Source: Nocardia sp. NBC_01730 (lineage in GTDB: Bacteria; Actinomycetota; Actinomycetes; Mycobacteriales; Mycobacteriaceae). Taken from it: DNA of 64,000 nucleotides. Numbering within the stretch: position 1 is the stretch's first letter; the number at the start of each line of letters is the position of its first letter. Both the position numbers and the translations under genes were made by a program. The stretch covers positions 2,976,001-3,040,000 of the forward strand of contig NZ_CP109162.1 of NCBI RefSeq assembly GCF_035920445.1. Reading direction: 5' to 3'. Shown in pieces: positions 43,632 through 51,909 of the stretch. The notes beneath the pieces are model-generated. The model was not told where the DNA came from. It was given only the letters and a program-made list of their open reading frames with translations, and did no database searches.

Positions 43632-43731
43632 TCAATACGCCCAGTTCGTGCCAGTTCCTCTGTATTGCTCGACCGAGATGGGCTCCACACCAGGCTTCAT
43701 GTGGTCGAGATAGATCAGTCCGTGCAGGTGG
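43632..43731 (-). pseudogene. 3' half of a split peptide deformylase gene
   Basis: On the minus strand these codons read HLHGLIYLDHMKPGVEP and end YRGTGTNWAY-stop, the C-terminal end of a deformylase. Joined to the 5' half at 48320-48864, they give HEIDHLHGLIYLDHM in one frame. The break falls at the GTGG flanking the Tn554-type element. The gene was therefore cut by that insertion. Confidence 0.82.
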
Positions 43732-43889
43732 TATCCGGGGTACAGCTGGCGCACCGCCGACGACGCTGACGTTCGACGGGTTCCTGGGGAAATGAGGATC
43801 GGGTCGGCTCTTATCCGGGGAATGTCCGCCACGCCGTTGACGACGTTGACGTCCGATGATCGCTGAGGGTTCGCCGGTATGGTCCCGGC
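43732..43889. repeat. 80-bp periodic repeats at the left end of the element
   Basis: TATCCGGGG occurs at 43732 and again at 43812, and GACGYTGACGTYCGA at 43762 and 43842, each pair exactly 80 bases apart. The intervening bases are less alike. The arrangement suggests two recombinase-binding arms between the element end and tnpA. TTATCCGG is also found, inverted, at the right end. Confidence 0.6.
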
Positions 43890-45056
43890 ATGGCCGTCCG
43901 TCAACGAGTTGTGGCTGGTGACGAGGTAACCCATGTCGTCCTCGATCGGGAGTGGAAAGTGATCGCGCCGATCGAGGATTACCTTGAATACCTGCGTCAG
44001 GAGCAGTACTCGCCCCACACGGTCCGGAGTTACGCCGGGGGGCTGGCGTCGTGGTGGACGTTGTTGGAGCAGCGGGGACAGGATTGGCGGCACGTCGGTG
44101 TCGACGATCTGGCCCGGTTCGCGCGGCGGTTGCGTGACCGGGGATCCGATCCGACAGTGCTAGCGCTGCGGCCATCGAAACCGGCGGCGACGAGCACGGT
44201 TGGTTCGGCGGTAACCGCAGTGCTCGGCTTCTATCGCTATCACGCGATCGTGGGCGGCGTTCCCGCTGCGCGGCAGTTCTACGTGCATGTCACCGGCGGA
44301 ACGATGCAATCGCGCAGCCAGTACGCGTCGTTCCTCGGCCACATCGGCGGCGGCCAGGATCGACGGGTGATCGGCCGCCGCCGAGGACCGAGCACTCCGG
44401 CACCACTGCTGTCGCCGCAGCAGATCGCTGTCATCAAGGACGATGCTGCGCGATTCGAGGACGGAAACTGGTTGGGGGACTTGCGCTTCCGGTTGCTCTG
44501 GAGCCTATTGGAGGAAACCGGCGTTCGGATCGCCGAGGCACTGTTGATGCGGCATCGAGACTGGCAGCCCGGCACAGGTACTACCGCGTTCATCGAGGTG
44601 GAGCCACGTGAAGATCTCCGGCGTCGTCTGCGGGTGAAGAATCAGCACTTCCGTCGCATCTATGTCGGTGACGAGTTGGACGATCTCTACGGCGAGTATC
44701 TGTTTCTGCTGGCGGAGCATGGTTTCCAGTTCGACGATGACGATCCGATCTTCATCAACTTCTATCGGGGTCAGATCGGCCGGCCGTTGCGGGCCGAGAC
44801 TGTCTACGACTGGATCGAGGGTTTCAAACGCCGTCATCCGCTGCTGCCGGCGGAATGGACACCCCACTGGTTCCGGCATTTTCACGCCACCGCGCTCTTG
44901 TTGGCCGGGATTCCGCCGCACGTTGTTCAGCGTCGGCTCGGGCATCAAGACATCAACACGTTGATGAGGACGTATGCTCACGTCACCGATGACGCCGAGA
45001 TGCGGGCCGCCGCAGATTGGAAGATGCTGATCCAGCGGTGGGGAGCCGCCGCGTGA
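43890..45056 (+). CDS. tnpA: Tn554-type transposase A (tyrosine recombinase)
   Basis: 388 residues; Tn554 TnpA is about 360. Catalytic set: R213 (EETGVRIAEALLM), K250 (RLRVKNQHF), H326-x-x-R329-H330 (PHWFRHFHATALL), H352 (RRLGHQD) and Y362 (RTYAHVTD). The N-terminal SAM-like domain contains YLRQEQYSPHTVRSYAGGL. Its TGA overlaps the GTG of tnpB. Recombination at the deformylase target is its inferred job, together with TnpB and TnpC. Confidence 0.92.
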   Translation: MAVRQRVVAGDEVTHVVLDREWKVIAPIEDYLEYLRQEQYSPHTVRSYAGGLASWWTLLEQRGQDWRHVGVDDLARFARRLRDRGSDPTVLALRPSKPAATSTVGSAVTAVLGFYRYHAIVGGVPAARQFYVHVTGGTMQSRSQYASFLGHIGGGQDRRVIGRRRGPSTPAPLLSPQQIAVIKDDAARFEDGNWLGDLRFRLLWSLLEETGVRIAEALLMRHRDWQPGTGTTAFIEVEPREDLRRRLRVKNQHFRRIYVGDELDDLYGEYLFLLAEHGFQFDDDDPIFINFYRGQIGRPLRAETVYDWIEGFKRRHPLLPAEWTPHWFRHFHATALLLAGIPPHVVQRRLGHQDINTLMRTYAHVTDDAEMRAAADWKMLIQRWGAAA

Positions 45057-47203
45057 GCGTGACGTTGCGGACACCGGCCACCGATCGTCACTCGGAGAAA
45101 GCAGATCCGCGGCTGTTCATCGGTGGCAGCTACGACGAGCGGGTGAATCGGCAACTGGCCGCGGAACTTCCGGAGCAGGTGCGAGGCGCCTACTTCGACC
45201 GGGACGACATGCCCGCGCACTGGATTGCCGCCATCGCCGAGAACCTGCCGACCTATCGGGCGAAAGGGCACAGCGTCGTCCTGGATTTCCGAGTGCTGCC
45301 CGAACCGATGCGCACGGAGTTCCTCTGGGCCGCCGAGCGGCAGGTTCAGCTCGGTCTTCATGTCCACGCGGTGCCGACCACCAGGCTCTGCGCCTACCTG
45401 GGCGAGGCAGTCGAGCGCGAATACCCTGACGCGGTCAGCTTGTTCGACCGGTCGAAGGACGAGTGGTCGAGGGCGTTCGTGAAGATGCGCATAACCGACG
45501 GGCGGCCACTGCAGCCGAGCTATTTGGCGCGGCTGGGCTGGGTGCTGGGACGCACCTTCGACACGCTCGCCCATGTCTATCACAAGGGCCCATGGTGGGA
45601 ACTGGACGTCTGGAATCCGATGTTCGATCCACGAATTCCGTTGCGCGAACACGAACCCAAGCGCACCAACATCACCTACTTCCAGCAGTTGACGACCCCG
45701 TGGCTGCGGCAGGGAGCCAAGTTCTGGCTGTCGCGGCAGCTGGAGCGGGATGTCTATACCTGGACCACGGTTCACGACCGTCGATACAACCTGCAATGGT
45801 TGCAGCAGTATGTCGACGACGTCGGCTGCGATGGCCCCCACCTTGTCGACGATCCAGCCAAACTGGGCTCCTGGATCCAGGACCTCCGGCAATGGCTGCG
45901 CCACCAGAAATGCAAGTCAGGGTCTCGGAAAGGTCAGCCGCTCAGCGAAACTCCCCGACGAGCCGCGCTGACGGCGCTCGAACAGCTCTACCAGTTCATG
46001 TTCGTCGAAGGCGCAGCCACTATCGGCAACGACGACTGGTCTCGGTTGGGGCCACAGCACGCGGTGTTGTTCCGATTCGGCGACAAGCCCACCGGCCCCA
46101 AACGTCCACGGCCAGAGATGATCCTCAGCGACTCGGTGATCAGCCGGATCGCGCAGCAGAGCGAGCTCATCGCCCGCCCGGCCGAAGAGGGCGGGCTCGG
46201 CGACGAGCAGTTGCTGAGGATGCTCGGCCTGATGATCCGCACCGGTCGGCGGATCAAGGAAATAGCCATGCTCGATTTCGATCCGCTGATCGCGATCCCG
46301 TTCCATGACCCGGACGGCCACGTCGCCCGACTGCGCTACCAGCAGACGAAGATCAGCACAGGCGACGCCACGATCCTGGTCGACCAGGAGGTCGTCGACC
46401 TGATTCGCCAGCAGCAGGCCTACGCACGCGCGTTCATGGCCCGGCAAGGCCGCGCTCAGGTCGACCCGAAATATCTGTTTCTCGCCCACGTCCAGAACCG
46501 CAACGGTGAGCGGCCCTACCCCGTTGGCACCGCACGGCCACGGCTGACGCAGTTCGCGAAATTGGTCGATCTGCGCGACGAGATGGGGCGGGAAGTCGAG
46601 CTCAGCCGCACTCACACCTTCCGCCACACCAAGGCGACGAATCTGCTCAACGCTGGGGTGCCGATCCACGTCGCGATGCGCTACATGGGGCATGCGTCAC
46701 CGGTCATGTTCATGCACTACGCGCAGACACTGGCCGAGACGGCAGAGCGAGAGTTTCTGCGCTACAAGAAGATTGCGGTCGATGGTCGAGATCACAGCCA
46801 GGACCCCAAGGAGATGTTCGAGTCCATCGCGCTGGACAAACGCACCGACCGGGTGCTGCCGAACGGCTGGTGCCTGCTGCCTCCTCGCCAACACTGCGAC
46901 AAGGGAAATGCCTGCCTGACATGCACAAAGTTCGCGACCGACGCATCACACGCGCCGGTCTTGCGGCAGCAACACCGCGAGACCCTCGAACTGATCGACC
47001 GACGCCAACAGGCCCACTGCGAACGATTCGGCGAGCCCATGAGCGAGGATAACGTCTGGCTCCGTGGCCGACGCGCAGAAACCACGGCGCTCACGGCCAT
47101 CCTCGGCCGCCTCAAGCAGATCCGCTCGGTCGAGGTCACCACCGCGATCCGAGGAGCGGGCGCACCGCAACGCCAGAAAGACGAGGCGACCCGACATGAC
47201 TGA
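45053..47203 (+). CDS. tnpB: Tn554-type transposase B (large tyrosine recombinase)
   Basis: 716 residues; Tn554 TnpB is about 630. Catalytic residues: R399 (RTGRRIKEIAML), K433 (QQTKIST), H521-x-x-R524-H525 (HTFRHTKATNLL), H547 (YMGHASP) and Y556 (MHYAQTL). The C-terminal part has a cysteine cluster, C607, C615, C621 and C624 (WCLLPPRQHCDKGNACLTC), likely to bind zinc, as in other TnpB proteins of this type. GTG start at 45053 chosen because of the GTGA coupling with tnpA; an upstream frame extension into tnpA is not coding. Confidence 0.92.
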   Translation: MSVTLRTPATDRHSEKADPRLFIGGSYDERVNRQLAAELPEQVRGAYFDRDDMPAHWIAAIAENLPTYRAKGHSVVLDFRVLPEPMRTEFLWAAERQVQLGLHVHAVPTTRLCAYLGEAVEREYPDAVSLFDRSKDEWSRAFVKMRITDGRPLQPSYLARLGWVLGRTFDTLAHVYHKGPWWELDVWNPMFDPRIPLREHEPKRTNITYFQQLTTPWLRQGAKFWLSRQLERDVYTWTTVHDRRYNLQWLQQYVDDVGCDGPHLVDDPAKLGSWIQDLRQWLRHQKCKSGSRKGQPLSETPRRAALTALEQLYQFMFVEGAATIGNDDWSRLGPQHAVLFRFGDKPTGPKRPRPEMILSDSVISRIAQQSELIARPAEEGGLGDEQLLRMLGLMIRTGRRIKEIAMLDFDPLIAIPFHDPDGHVARLRYQQTKISTGDATILVDQEVVDLIRQQQAYARAFMARQGRAQVDPKYLFLAHVQNRNGERPYPVGTARPRLTQFAKLVDLRDEMGREVELSRTHTFRHTKATNLLNAGVPIHVAMRYMGHASPVMFMHYAQTLAETAEREFLRYKKIAVDGRDHSQDPKEMFESIALDKRTDRVLPNGWCLLPPRQHCDKGNACLTCTKFATDASHAPVLRQQHRETLELIDRRQQAHCERFGEPMSEDNVWLRGRRAETTALTAILGRLKQIRSVEVTTAIRGAGAPQRQKDEATRHD

Positions 47204-47600
47204 CCGACGCACCGAGGTCCTCGCCGACGCGACCCGGCAACGCACATACCGAGCCGAAAAAGCAGTCGAAAAGGCCCTCGCCCAGGCCCGAAACACTGGT
47301 GGCCCGGTGACCATCGCGGGAATCGCCGCGTCCGCCGGAGTGTCATCCGATTTCATCTACCGCCACCCAACACTGCGACCCCGGGTCGAAGCATTGCGTC
47401 GAGCAAATTCCCCGGCTCGGACCGGAGTCGACATCCCGGCAGACGCTCACGCCGCTGAGAGCACTCTGGTCCGCAGGCTCACGCATCAGCTGGCCACCGT
47501 CCGCCGGCAACATCAACAGCAAGTCGCCGAACTCCGTGCGGCGCTCGAAGCCGCGCACGGAGAACTACTGCTTCTGCGCAGGAGCCGCGACGATCAGTGA
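47196..47600 (+). CDS. tnpC: Tn554-type accessory protein TnpC (DUF6262)
   Basis: 134 residues; Tn554 TnpC is 125. The N-terminal part has an HTH-like segment (GIAASAGVSSDFIYRHPTLR) and the C-terminus a coiled coil (TVRRQHQQQVAELRAALEAA). TnpC is known to influence frequency and orientation of Tn554 insertion. The ATG overlaps the end of tnpB by eight bases, completing a coupled three-gene operon. Confidence 0.88.
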   Translation: MTDRRTEVLADATRQRTYRAEKAVEKALAQARNTGGPVTIAGIAASAGVSSDFIYRHPTLRPRVEALRRANSPARTGVDIPADAHAAESTLVRRLTHQLATVRRQHQQQVAELRAALEAAHGELLLLRRSRDDQ

Positions 47601-47636
47601 ACCTCACCGCCAGACCGAAAACCGCCAAACGCCTGC

Positions 47637-48200
47637 CTATTTCGAGTACTGCCATACCGAGCCGGTTCCCCGATACTCCGCCAGCGGAATCGGCACCATA
47701 CCTGGCCGCATTTTCTCCTTGAACAACTTTCCAGCCAGATGATCGATCTCATGAGCCACGAGCCTGGCGGCTCCGTGCTCGAATCTCGACACCTGCTGTG
47801 ATCCGTCGAGCCAATCGTGAGCGACACGCATCATCAGCGGTCGAGGAACACGGCCGCGCACATCGAAGAAGCTGAGGCAGCCCTCGAACTGCTCGTCGGT
47901 CTCCTCCGACTTCTCAACGACCACAGGATTGAGCAGGATCATCGAGCGGCCGCCCGGGAGCCGGACGATCGCGGCCGCCCTCTCGATCCCGATCTGCGGT
48001 GCCGCAACACCAACCCCTTTCGCGAACTCGTGAACAGCACTCACTCGGTCCGCGGCGGCATCGAGGGCGTCGATCACCGACAGCGCTTCCTCTTGGTCCG
48101 CAGGCAGTTCGAACCGGCGAGCCACTCGGGAAAGCCGCGGATCGCCCTCCTGCACGATGCCGGCCTGCCGCATCAGCTCAGTAATGGTCGGCTCCGCCAC
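47637..48200 (-). CDS. def: peptide deformylase, passenger of the Tn554-type element
   Basis: Removes the formyl group from nascent N-terminal methionine, using a metal ion. The 187-residue protein has all three motifs: GVGVAAPQ (62-69), EGCLS (106-110, ligand C108) and HEIDH (150-154). AGGAGG lies five bases before the GTG at 48200. It is convergent with tnpC and wholly inside the element. Its HEIDHL codons are CAT GAG ATC GAT CAT CTG, so it lacks the GTGGTCGAT present at the disrupted gene. The N-terminal part with TITELMRQAGIVQEGD resembles the actinobacterial accessory type. Whether it deformylates proteins generally or gives actinonin-type resistance is unknown. Confidence 0.92.
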   Translation of the reverse strand: MAEPTITELMRQAGIVQEGDPRLSRVARRFELPADQEEALSVIDALDAAADRVSAVHEFAKGVGVAAPQIGIERAAAIVRLPGGRSMILLNPVVVEKSEETDEQFEGCLSFFDVRGRVPRPLMMRVAHDWLDGSQQVSRFEHGAARLVAHEIDHLAGKLFKEKMRPGMVPIPLAEYRGTGSVWQYSK

Positions 48201-48319
48201 TGGCACCTCCTAGACGTCGTGGACTCGGATAGGGGGTTGATCCTCTACGTCAGCGGCATACCGCCGACGTCTCACCTGCACAAACATCCTCGAAATCCGT
48301 TGCAGCGCCGGATAATAAG

Positions 48320-48864
48320 TGGTCGATTTCATGTGCGGCCAGGCGCGCGACTCCGCGGTCGAACACCGTAATCCGGGTGTTGCCGTCGATGTCGGTGTGT
48401 TCGACGTGGATCGTCAACGGGCGCGGCACTTGTCCGCGTAGGTCGAAGAAGCTCAAGCATCCTTCCTACTGCTCGTCTTCGCCGCCGCCCGTTTCCACGA
48501 TGCGCGGGTTGAACAGGGTGATGGTGTCCACGTTGGGGGTCCGGACGATCGCCGCGGCCCTGCTGATGCCGATCTGCGGTGCCGCGATGCCCATCCCTTT
48601 GCCGAACACATGGGCTTTGGCGACACGCTCGGCGGCCGAATTCAGTTCAGCGATGACACGGCGTGCGTCTTCTGCTTCGACGGGCAGATCAAACGGGCGC
48701 GCGACCACGCACAGGATCTCGTCACCTTCCTGCGCGATGCCCAGGCCGACCATGATGCCGCGATCAGCCTGCACCGCCTCCACGGAGAGGAAAACATCGC
48801 CGAGGCCTGCCGCACCACCGCGCTCAGCCAACACCGCGGAATCCATCTCCTCCAGGACCATCAA
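48320..48864 (-). pseudogene. 5' part of the split peptide deformylase gene, also with a TAG
   Basis: Encodes GKGMGIAAPQIG, then DEQ, a TAG at 48466-48468, and in the same frame EGCLSFFDLRG and HEIDH at the junction. In the intact copy a phenylalanine occupies the TAG position. Beyond the junction the frame runs into the element and ends at 48250. The gene is thus dead twice: split by the insertion and stopped by a nonsense codon, the latter probably acquired afterwards. Its true N-terminus is unclear (ATG at 48864 or later). Confidence 0.82.
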
Positions 48865-48958: not shown

Positions 48959-50338
48959 TCATTGTTGCGCTGATTGCTCTATCTTAAGGTGACGGCGTTC
49001 GTCGGTTGCGTCGTCGAAGAATTGATGCAGCTTCGTAACTACATTCTCTGTTGCCGGCCAATGATACTCCGTCTCGGCAGTGAATTCCCGCGGCCCGGCC
49101 TCATTAAAACCCATTTTCGCAAACTCGACAGCTCTACCCTTGTGTACTGCGAGAAATCCCTGGGTGTACGAGTCGATCAAGTCATTGAAGGCACGAACCA
49201 CCGGATGGTCGCGTCGCTTTGCTGCGCACTCATTAGCGAATTGTCGCAACTGGGGCCCGTGGGCCACGCTCTTGATGAAGACCTGATGGTTGTGCTGCAT
49301 CTGCAGAAATGCCTTCTTTGAGGTTTTTCCTAGTTCGGTATCGAAGTTTGCACGCCCCAGAAAAGCATCAATTAGATGAATGCACGGAGCTTGTGGCCCC
49401 GACAGGCCGAGATGTCCCCCATACCCGGACGTGTACTTCACTATATCGCGGTGCCATACAACTGGGTCGACAGATCTTCGTGACAGCATAGCAAATCCGA
49501 GTCGCAGTCGCTTGAATGCGTCGATAGCTTTACCAATATGATGTAGTATCTCGCCAACTATTGCCAGTTGCTCTGCGGATTCGGTTGCCCTGACGTTTAA
49601 CGCACGGTAGTTGTGTATGAGTTGTTGAGTCTCGGCTACGATGCCCACAAGATCGCTTACACGATACTCCATCATGGTCGGCGTGTTGTGAAACCTATTC
49701 TCCGCTTGGCCTCGGACCTGTGATGATTCGATGTCGCCTGCGGCGGCTTCCGCTGGGCTGGATGCATTGTTAACCGGACATATCAGTTTGAAATCATCAA
49801 AAGTACAGCTCAGCAGGTCAACGTGGTCGCTCACCAGATAGGATGCGGTAAGACTCATGTCGGCAAGTGCACAATAATTAGGCGATTCACAATAATCGGC
49901 AAAGCGATTCACGGCATTCTGAACATGGCCAGGCAGCGGCTCCGGCTCAGGCATTTCTTGAGCAATAACTCGGTCGAAATCTATGCAAGCCTGCGCAATG
50001 CAGAACACGATGCTTTTAGTCTTCATAAAGGTTAACGGATCGTTAGTGCAGTCGTTATAAATGGAGTCGACATCCAGTGTTTCGACTTCATTAGCGCAAA
50101 TTTCACGTACACGTTTACTGATGAATTGCTCTGGTAACTGTTTCCACAGGCGGAGCCATCGATCGGGCAGGGCAATACGCGCCGATTGCATCGCTTTCGG
50201 ATCAAACATGAAACCAAAATCTTTGGAGAGCGCGCCTTTCAAGGGATTAAGCCCATTTTCCAGAAGCTCCCATGACGGCACGGTTGATGCATGCATCGAA
50301 ATGACCTTTTTCAGTTGATAGTATAAATTGGCAGACAT
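48959..50338 (-). CDS. indoleamine 2,3-dioxygenase/PrnB-superfamily-like protein, foreign base composition
   Basis: 459 residues, no membrane segments. Several blocks line up by eye with IDO-type heme dioxygenases: GHLGLSGPQAPCIHLIDAFL (309-328) with the glycine/serine loop and LDxxLG region; NHQVFIKSVAHGPQLRQF (350-367) with the PPAHRxFL segment; FLAVHKGRAVEF (395-406) with the strand holding the proximal heme histidine (H399 here); and ENVVTKLHQFFDDATDERR with the final GTGGT-x-FL-x-x-R helix. Expected chemistry is oxidation of tryptophan or another indole, but the substrate is open. A+T content is visibly higher than in the flanks. A start at 50296 has a better AAAAAGG. Confidence 0.55.
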   Translation of the reverse strand: MSANLYYQLKKVISMHASTVPSWELLENGLNPLKGALSKDFGFMFDPKAMQSARIALPDRWLRLWKQLPEQFISKRVREICANEVETLDVDSIYNDCTNDPLTFMKTKSIVFCIAQACIDFDRVIAQEMPEPEPLPGHVQNAVNRFADYCESPNYCALADMSLTASYLVSDHVDLLSCTFDDFKLICPVNNASSPAEAAAGDIESSQVRGQAENRFHNTPTMMEYRVSDLVGIVAETQQLIHNYRALNVRATESAEQLAIVGEILHHIGKAIDAFKRLRLGFAMLSRRSVDPVVWHRDIVKYTSGYGGHLGLSGPQAPCIHLIDAFLGRANFDTELGKTSKKAFLQMQHNHQVFIKSVAHGPQLRQFANECAAKRRDHPVVRAFNDLIDSYTQGFLAVHKGRAVEFAKMGFNEAGPREFTAETEYHWPATENVVTKLHQFFDDATDERRHLKIEQSAQQ

Positions 50339-50732: not shown

Positions 50733-51909
50733 AAGATCTTTTGGTAATAGAGTGAGTTGCTGTCAGAGGAGAAGCCTGGTGTGGTCGAGGAAGTTGAAAC
50801 ACAGATCGTAGTTCGTGCCGACGCGTTCGAGCCCGGTTTCGGTAGCGGCGCGGGCTTCATCGATCGTGTCGGGACACAGATTGGCCAGTTCGGTGGATTT
50901 GATGTTGCCCCAGACCATTTCGATGGGGTTGAGTTCGTAACGGTAGGGTGGGAGTTGCTCGACGCGCAGCCACATGCGTTGGGTCGCGATCCAGGCTTTC
51001 ATGGCCTTGGAGCGGTGCGAGGGCAGCCCGTCCCCGATCAGGGTGACCGCGTCACCGGCGAAGTGCTCACCCAGTGCGGTGAGGAATTCGATCAGCGACT
51101 CGGTGTTGTAAGCGCCTTCTTTGATCTGGAACACGAACGCCGTGCCACTGCGGTCGGGCCGATAGGCCAGGACCCCGGCCATCGACAGTCGTTTCCACGA
51201 AAAGCGGTGCCGCAGCACCGGTGTCACACCTTTGGGCGCCCAGGTCGCTCTCACTGCGGGCAGCAGGGAGAATCCGATTTCGTCTTGGAAGCAGATCCAC
51301 GCACCTCGGCGCCGAGCGCTTTTTTATGCGCGGCCACTCGGTCTCGCGCCACGCCGCGATCACCTCGTCGTTGCGCTCGACCGCCCGCCGGGCCGGGCGC
51401 TGCCGACTCCATCCCATCCGCTCCCGCAGGATCGTCCAGGTCTGCGTCTGTGAATACCGCACCCCGGTCATGCGCTCGATCACCTCGGCCACCCGCGCCA
51501 AGGTCCACATGTCAGTCGGAAACCCATTCGCCTTGGGACCCTTCATCAATGCGGCTTCGACCTCGCAAACGTGTTCATCGCTCAACCGTTGCCGACGACC
51601 CGCCCGGCCCACACTCGCCAAAGCGTCACGTCCACCTTCGACCCATGCCTTCTGCCAGCGCGACGCCGTCTGCGCCGACACCTCGAGCTCCACCACCACA
51701 TCGACCTGCCGCCTACCGGCCTCGAACATCTCCACCGCCCGCATACGACGCTCCCGCAATACGTCGAAATCACGACGCACCCGGGCACGCTTGTTCTTTC
51801 GGCCTCTCTCCCGCCCACCCGATGATGGCTCCCGCTCTGACACCCTGCGATGGTCCTACACCGCAGCACAACCCGACCGGAGCAACTCACCAAGTAACCG
51901 AAAGATCTT
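50733..51909. mobile_element. IS630-family insertion sequence
   Basis: Imperfect 29-base terminal inverted repeats: left AAGATCTTTTGGTAATAG..., right (complement) AAGATCTTTCGGTTACTT..., both ending GTGAGTTGCT, 23 of 29 matching. Each end is flanked by TA (50731-50732 and 51910-51911), the duplication typical for IS630/Tc1-mariner. One transposase gene, minus strand, fills it. Confidence 0.85.
50763..51843 (-). CDS. IS630-family transposase, two frames
   Basis: A DDE transposase. The first frame (from ATG 51843) has the HTH domains (RRQVDVVVELEVSAQTASRW, VAEVIERMTGVRYSQTQTW). The second holds the catalytic part: AWICFQDEIGFSLLP with the first aspartate, LIGDGLPSHRSKAM with the second, and ELNPIEMVWGNIKS with the glutamate. 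The switch is needed near 51325, at ATAAAAAAGC, and must be +1 (or -2). Either programmed frameshifting on the A6 run or an inactivating indel; IS630 elements of both kinds are known. Confidence 0.8.

What the first reader, a model, noticed from the sequence alone, without database searches (positions are those of the whole stretch)
43632..48864. Tn554-type transposon inserted in the HEIDHL codons of a peptide deformylase gene, carrying a replacement deformylase
The flanks of 43732-48319 encode the two halves of one deformylase on the minus strand. Deleting the element with one GTGG rejoins them as HEIDHLHGLIYLDHM in frame. Inside the element, next to tnpABC, is a complete deformylase with all three motifs. 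Tn554 elements are known to insert site-specifically into radC; a conserved metal-site codon stretch of def as target, with a def passenger that could make up for the loss, is a design I do not know to be described. That the passenger complements is inference.
Basis: partly seen in the sequence, partly recalled or inferred. Interest (0 to 1): 0.82.

Follow-up and report, generated by a model that had tools for sequence, protein, structure and literature searches.

The report
Transposon in deformylase gene carrying deformylase
A jumping gene of the Tn554 kind has cut an accessory protein-maturation (deformylase) gene in two at its active-site codons and brings a complete deformylase of its own; a second, diverged copy in Streptomyces is built the same way, so the match of target and cargo is not an accident of one genome.

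Summary
Confirmed and refined. Window 43732-48318 (4587 bp) is a Tn554-family transposon (tnpA, tnpB, tnpC/DUF6262) in the His-Leu codons of HEIDHL of a peptide deformylase (def) gene, with a complete def as cargo. Intact same-genus orthologues give the empty site. A diverged copy in Streptomyces albireticuli (TnpA 79%, TnpB 69%) has the same target codons and cargo. The cargo defs form one clade, the two targets belong to separate host clades, so the cargo is not a local duplicate. Corrections: the target is an accessory def fused or coupled to an XRE regulator; both hosts keep other intact defs; the window's target also has an in-frame TAG and no XRE part. The site is a DNA core (~AGGTGGTCGAT) at Asp-His-Leu/Val codons: relatives sit at like codons in HNH-like and DUF1524-type genes, a distant branch in Tn3 transposase genes, without def and without a spare of their own target. 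Best reading: a working def set down about 120 bp behind the broken one, on its strand, able to take its place. That it does so is inference.

The parts
43632..43731 (-). C-terminal part of the interrupted def (LHGLIYLDHMKPGVEPISVEQYRGTGTNWAY, stop)
   Evidence: Rejoins in frame; 75-94% identical over 32 residues to the matching piece of L049, L051, L052, L057-L059, L061
43728..43731 (.). GTGG at the left junction
43732..48318 (.). Tn554-family transposon, 4587 bp
   Evidence: Ends set by the empty-site alignment and by comparison with L010
43732..43856 (.). Left end: two 45-nt direct repeats (43732-43776, 43812-43856), 73% alike, 80 nt apart
43890..45056 (+). tnpA, tyrosine recombinase, 388 aa
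   Evidence: PF00589 and PF02899; R213, K250, H326, R329, H352, Y362 invariant in 9 aligned TnpA incl. the staphylococcal one
45053..47203 (+). tnpB, large tyrosine recombinase, 716 aa
   Evidence: PF00589; R400, K433, H521, R524, H547, Y556 and C607, C615, C621, C624 invariant in 7 aligned TnpB
47196..47600 (+). tnpC, DUF6262 type, 134 aa
   Evidence: PF19776 at 26.2 bits, just under its cut-off of 29; the L010 and L110 homologues pass it, 38.2 and 36.8
47637..48206 (-). Cargo peptide deformylase, 187-189 aa; likely start GTG 48198-48200 after AGGAGG (48206-48211)
   Evidence: PF01327 107.5 bits; three motifs; nearest solved chains are deformylases; start read
48319..48322 (.). GTGG at the right junction
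48319..48864 (-). Upstream part of the interrupted def; in-frame TAG at 48466-48468; similarity to orthologues begins at about 48753; XRE part missing

Best explanation
A Tn554-family site-specific transposon inserts, by its TnpA/TnpB tyrosine recombinases with TnpC, at a short DNA core (~AGGTGGTCGAT; coding strand ATCGACCACCT, codons Ile-Asp-His-Leu) that is conserved between hosts because it encodes active-site residues. In the def-targeting subclade the element carries its own deformylase near its right end. In both copies this gene lies on the strand of the interrupted def and starts about 120 bp beyond the break, so it can be read from the interrupted gene's promoter and put one intact accessory-type deformylase back. 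Shown: element, junctions, empty site, second diverged copy, common descent of the cargos apart from the targets, cargo frame kept. Inferred: transposition itself, read-through from the target's promoter, enzyme activity, and that offsetting the lost def is why the cargo is kept.
For: Two copies, 79% (TnpA) and 69% (TnpB) alike, with the same target codons, strand and spacing, in two genera. Cargo clade of 12 proteins, local support 0.99; none of 27 XRE-linked defs in the tree falls in it; targets sit in host clades. The nearer TnpA pair window/P0002 goes with the nearer cargo pair window/P0127, which share contig length 15560 and source. Cargo dN 0.29, dS 1.38 between the two copies, third codon positions most changed. 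The cargo is the only intact def of its subfamily in either host.
Against: Target def is dispensable: a match at E<=1e-20 in 27 of 150 same-genus genomes only, fragments and the own genome included. In the window the XRE part is gone and the target has a stop, so there may be no operon left to rescue. Five relatives in other genes carry no spare of their target, so offsetting is no family habit. n = 2; 2 of 2 against 0 of 5 gives a one-sided Fisher p of 0.048 by hand, and the copies are not independent. dS is near saturation.
Confidence: 0.5

Rival explanations
1. The cargo def pays by itself, most likely as a spare enzyme less sensitive to natural deformylase inhibitors, in the way Tn554 relatives carry drug-resistance genes; that the target is also a def is coincidence.
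For: Family habit: the fetched staphylococcal relative carries fexA, Tn6188 carries qacH (PMC3788773, passages). Cargo kept intact while diverging.
Against: Leaves the match of cargo and target unexplained; hosts hold 2-3 other defs already. Inhibitor sensitivity not testable here.
Confidence: 0.2
2. Capture by-product: because the recombinases act inside def genes, an element once picked up a neighbouring def between two usable sites; it has ridden along since, with no offsetting role.
For: Explains why cargo and target are of one family, and why only the def subclade has it. The L010 cargo still holds an intact core, GAGGTGGTCGAC.
Against: All three motifs in 10 of 12 cargo-type proteins by regex, and dN well under dS, point to a function kept.
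Confidence: 0.2
3. Replacement of the essential deformylase: the insertion would be lethal without the cargo.
For: Cargo is a complete deformylase by motif and profile.
Against: Two and three further intact defs; target-like defs absent from most same-genus genomes.
Confidence: 0.03
4. The cargo is a local tandem duplicate of the target.
For: Adjacent and 53-57% identical to the target.
Against: The cargos of the two genera are closer to each other (64%) than to their own targets (53%, 57%) and form a supported clade apart from them.
Confidence: 0.02

Closest known systems
Tn554 family of Firmicutes (Tn554, Tn558, Tn6188)
   Same: tnpA-tnpB-tnpC in order with cargo behind; site-specific insertion in a conserved codon stretch; TnpA 28%, TnpB 24%, TnpC 22% identical to a staphylococcal member. 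radC target in print: PMC3788773 (passages).
   Different: Target def (or HNH-like, DUF1524-type genes), not radC; cargo belongs to the family of the target; actinobacterial hosts; TnpB 716 aa against 637.
Actinobacterial Tn554-related transposons with one abnormally long recombinase (PMC3414803)
   Same: Long plus short recombinase plus TnpC-like third gene, actinobacterial plasmids and chromosomes (abstract, passages and section 10 read). This is the class the element belongs to.
   Different: The parts of that paper that I read name no interrupted gene and no def cargo.
[quoted passage not shown]
   Same: One ordinary and one large recombinase, target specificity, 6-bp footprint (PMC10214605, passages).
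   Different: Four core genes, Gammaproteobacteria; no homology test made here.

Membership tests
Tn554 family | tnpA, tnpB, tnpC in this order and homologous to a known member | tested here: met
   blastp to L133 (fexA-bearing staphylococcal element) 5e-38, 1e-24, 2e-8; these E-values are for a three-protein set
Tn554 family | Tyrosine-recombinase catalytic residues in both TnpA and TnpB | tested here: met
   R, K, H-x-x-R, H, Y invariant in 9 TnpA and 7 TnpB; which residues are catalytic is recalled
Tn554 family | Insertion at a fixed site within conserved codons | tested here: met
   Same codons in window and L010; like codons in L078, L079, L102, L104, L110, L111
Tn554 family | No target duplication; 6-bp footprint from the donor site at the right end | tested here: inconclusive
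   Only GTGG is shared by both window junctions; 7 variable nt between (CCG)GATA and the host GTC in 7 copies fit a footprint (by eye); donor sites unknown
Tn554 family | Target radC (Firmicute branch) | tested here: not met
   Target is def; radC is not said to define the actinobacterial class in the section read
Tn554 family | Transposition | not testable with these tools
   Mobility inferred from an occupied and an empty site and a second copy
Peptide deformylase (PF01327) | Profile match and the motifs GxGxAAPQ, EGCLS, HExDH | tested here: met
Peptide deformylase (PF01327) | Deformylase activity | not testable with these tools
   none

The most novel reading that the evidence does not exclude
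A transposon lineage that pays for its own insertion: it targets active-site codons of an accessory deformylase operon and, by fixed orientation, sets down an intact deformylase of the same family just behind the break under the target's promoter, so that the operon stays functional; cargo and target specificity are inherited together.
Probability: 0.4. Interest if true: 0.75.

Novelty: new variant of a known kind. Interest (0 to 1): 0.62.

Why it matters
It offers a testable case of how a site-specific transposon can offset the gene it breaks: target choice (invariant active-site codons) and cargo (the same gene family) go together in one lineage. It gives members of the actinobacterial Tn554-related class named target genes (def, HNH-like, DUF1524-type, Tn3 transposase), which predicts where further copies lie. 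It also brings up an XRE-deformylase pairing in actinobacteria whose function I could not find described.

Tried and rejected
Rejected: local tandem duplication; replacement of the essential deformylase; target defined as def only; 'the cargo's own site is recoded and so escapes insertion': the window cargo has GATGATCGAT, but the L010 cargo keeps GAGGTGGTCGAC.

Led nowhere: viral contigs, no relative of TnpB; plasmids, 56 records at E<=1e-30, none at 60% identity or more, and 300 at E<=1e-3, of which 60 were listed and the only listed row above 60% covers 7% of the query; cargo def in plasmids, 34 records, all under 60%; in phages, 17 records, 30-40% in the 15 listed; Rfam, no hit in 30001 bases at gathering level. 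The genome-contig scan found 2 loci; it needs exact 8-residue words. A shared contig length of 3976 for P0030 and P0148 is not used: on short contigs such a match may well be chance. Of 20 loci of distant relatives taken only L102 and L104 gave a target; for the other 18 I did not establish ends (L086 looks by eye like an IS110-type transposase gene, untested). L020, L021, L039, L045 and the contig-end fragment L015 were not followed up. Empty sites: 15 orthologue loci tried, 4 (L052, L053, L054, L059) dropped because my site regex missed them; L063/L064 and L055/L056 give identical scores and may not be independent. In one search the row W_target lacks Asp-His at its junction through a slip in my script; it still stands next to L058 at 90%. 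The join repeated three bases; one search has the right one. The middle of the printed output was cut.

Full report
Observation. The minus-strand stretches 43632-43731 and 48319-48864 belong to one deformylase gene, and 43732-48318 lies between them. With 43732-48322 removed the frame reads EIDHLHGLIYLDHMK; the rejoined DNA aligns to 11 same-genus orthologues over 515-541 nt at 70-89% identity, 7 of 11 without a gap, 3 with a 3-nt gap, 1 with 11. The cargo def finds matches in 27 of 150 same-genus genomes at E<=1e-20, own genome and fragments included; 19 of the 30 loci were read one by one. Target-like ones have an XRE-type regulator in the same open frame (L049, L050, L051, L061), L051 with HTH_31 and Pep_deformylase in one ORF. 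By tblastn an XRE relative was found at 14 of 19 same-genus and 19 of 20 Streptomyces-genus def loci examined, and not around the window's target. The target also has TAG where the orthologues read have Tyr, or Phe in L049. So it was an accessory def and is now a pseudogene; whether it decayed before or after the insertion cannot be told.

Anatomy. tnpA (43890-45056), tnpB (45053-47203) and tnpC (47196-47600) overlap and run plus; the cargo def runs minus, on the strand of the interrupted def, with AGGAGG before a GTG at 48198-48200, 118 bp from the right junction; in L010 the spacing is about 123 bp. The left end has two 45-nt repeats 80 nt apart. TATCCGG at the left terminus and CCGGATA near the right one are inverted. 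Between (CCG)GATA and the host GTC lie 7 nt that vary: ATAAGTG (window), AGAGGTG (L010), CCAGGTG (L079), GCAGGTG (L110), ACAGATG (L111), AGAGATG (L078), AGACATG (L104) (by eye). Tn554-related elements carry 6 bp from the left of the donor site to the right of the new one (PMC10214605, passages); these 7 nt fit that. In the window they differ from the present left flank, which would mean that the element came from another site (inference).

Second copy. The genome-contig scan returned 2 loci. L010, S. albireticuli NRRL B1670, has TnpA 79%, TnpB 69%, TnpC 70%, a complete def 66% identical to the cargo, and the two parts of an XRE-coupled def split at the same codons. L011 is a distant relative in a Tn3 transposase gene.

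How common. In the protein search 57 of the 120 listed TnpA relatives (373 found) are 59% identical or more, partial proteins included. In genomes: same genus, 5 of 148 with TnpB at E<=1e-50, only the own one above 50% apart from a contig-end fragment, L015; class, 12 of 394 with TnpA at E<=1e-40, none but the own above 47%; genus of G538 (Streptomyces), 14 of 392, two above 50%: G538 itself and G772, truncated; its family, 4 of 394 with TnpB at E<=1e-120; genus of G951, 2 of 35, both already known. The draws overlap and must not be added. In 31 of 251 genomes of the genus of G772 the L010 cargo matches at E<=1e-60; none of the 20 loci kept, with 1.5-kb flanks, has a TnpA, B or C match.

Targets of relatives. 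Ten copies have an identified target. def: window and L010, both halves. HNH-like gene with YDHLISLQLGG (family named by eye; no Pfam match): L110 and L111 both halves, L078 one. DUF1524-type gene at (I)DHL/V: L079 both halves (its C half passes PF07510 GmrSD_C, 32.3 bits against 23), L102 one half (17.0 bits, under the cut-off; 53% identical to L079's) and L104 one half (50% identical to L079's). Tn3 transposase gene: L112 and L011, both pieces (PF01526, 40 bits, for L112). None of L079, L110, L111, L112 and L011 has a def or a second copy of its target in the stretch searched. Hence for the def, HNH-like and DUF1524-type users the site is a DNA core at Asp-His codons, the def cargo belongs to one subclade, and a spare of the target is no family habit. 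The core alone does not decide: AGGTGGTCGAT occurs at 16 other places in the own genome, 0 for the reversed control. Of 5 housekeeping-type defs in the two hosts 4 show HETDH or HECDH, with TCGGT or TCGCA where the targets have TCGAT; L002 gave no match. Whether that protects them is open.

Trees (FastTree, local support). TnpA: window, L010, P0002, P0003 and P0004 group (0.89); L110 and L111 elsewhere in the 59% clade; L079 and L102 outside it. def: 12 proteins incl. both cargos, P0122 (Nocardia nepalensis, 90%) and P0127 group (0.99); none of the 27 XRE-linked defs in the tree is among them. The window target pairs with L058 (0.79), the L010 target with L120 (0.92). Only two of the 12 are known to lie in an element. 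P0127 and P0002 share contig length 15560 and source; that they are neighbours is inferred. All three motifs match in 10 of the 12; P0131 fails the first regex, P0132 the third. Between the two cargos dN is 0.29, dS 1.38, identity by codon position 76, 77, 45%.

Hosts. Own genome: 4 PF01327 matches = 2 intact without XRE, cargo, broken target. S. albireticuli: 5 = 3 intact without XRE, cargo, broken target. The cargo is thus the only intact def of the accessory subfamily in each, but not the only deformylase.

Mechanism. As in Best explanation. The structural part I hold at about 0.97, the offsetting role at 0.4 to 0.5; nothing here shows expression or activity.

Known work. The class is published: PMC3414803 (abstract, passages, section 10). 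radC targeting: PMC3788773 (passages). I found no report of a def target or def cargo: searches gave no paper; one search gave one, on a formaldehyde sensor by its listing; one on Clostridium genomes by its listing; others (15 of 25 listed; 10 of 10; 10 of 51) list no title or abstract start that mentions it. Most subscription papers are not held. In the fetched staphylococcal element radC ends ...VIFAHNHPS plus nine residues.

Noticed in passing
L049-L070 and L113-L132, other genomes: XRE-type regulators fused or next to a deformylase of their own subfamily are widespread in these actinobacteria (also on plasmids: 34 records, 31 of them Streptomyces, hold such defs); function not found described.
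   Followed up: partly
P0122 (Nocardia nepalensis, contig 50864) and P0126 (Streptomyces lunaelactis, contig 8396100): Cargo-type defs in named strains whose surroundings could not be read here; further copies of the element or a source of its cargo.
   Followed up: no
L112 (G1064) and L011 (Streptomyces sp. PH10-H1): A more distant branch of the same family lies inside Tn3-type transposase genes: a transposon that targets transposons.
   Followed up: partly
window 48959-50338, minus: Indoleamine 2,3-dioxygenase-like protein (PF01231, 36.6 bits) next to the broken def, where orthologous loci have the XRE part.
   Followed up: no
window 50763-51254, minus: IS630-type transposase fragment (NF033545, 79 bits, under the cut-off of 100).
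   Followed up: no
window 48466-48468: In-frame TAG in the interrupted def, Tyr or Phe in the orthologues read; order of stop and insertion unknown.
   Followed up: yes
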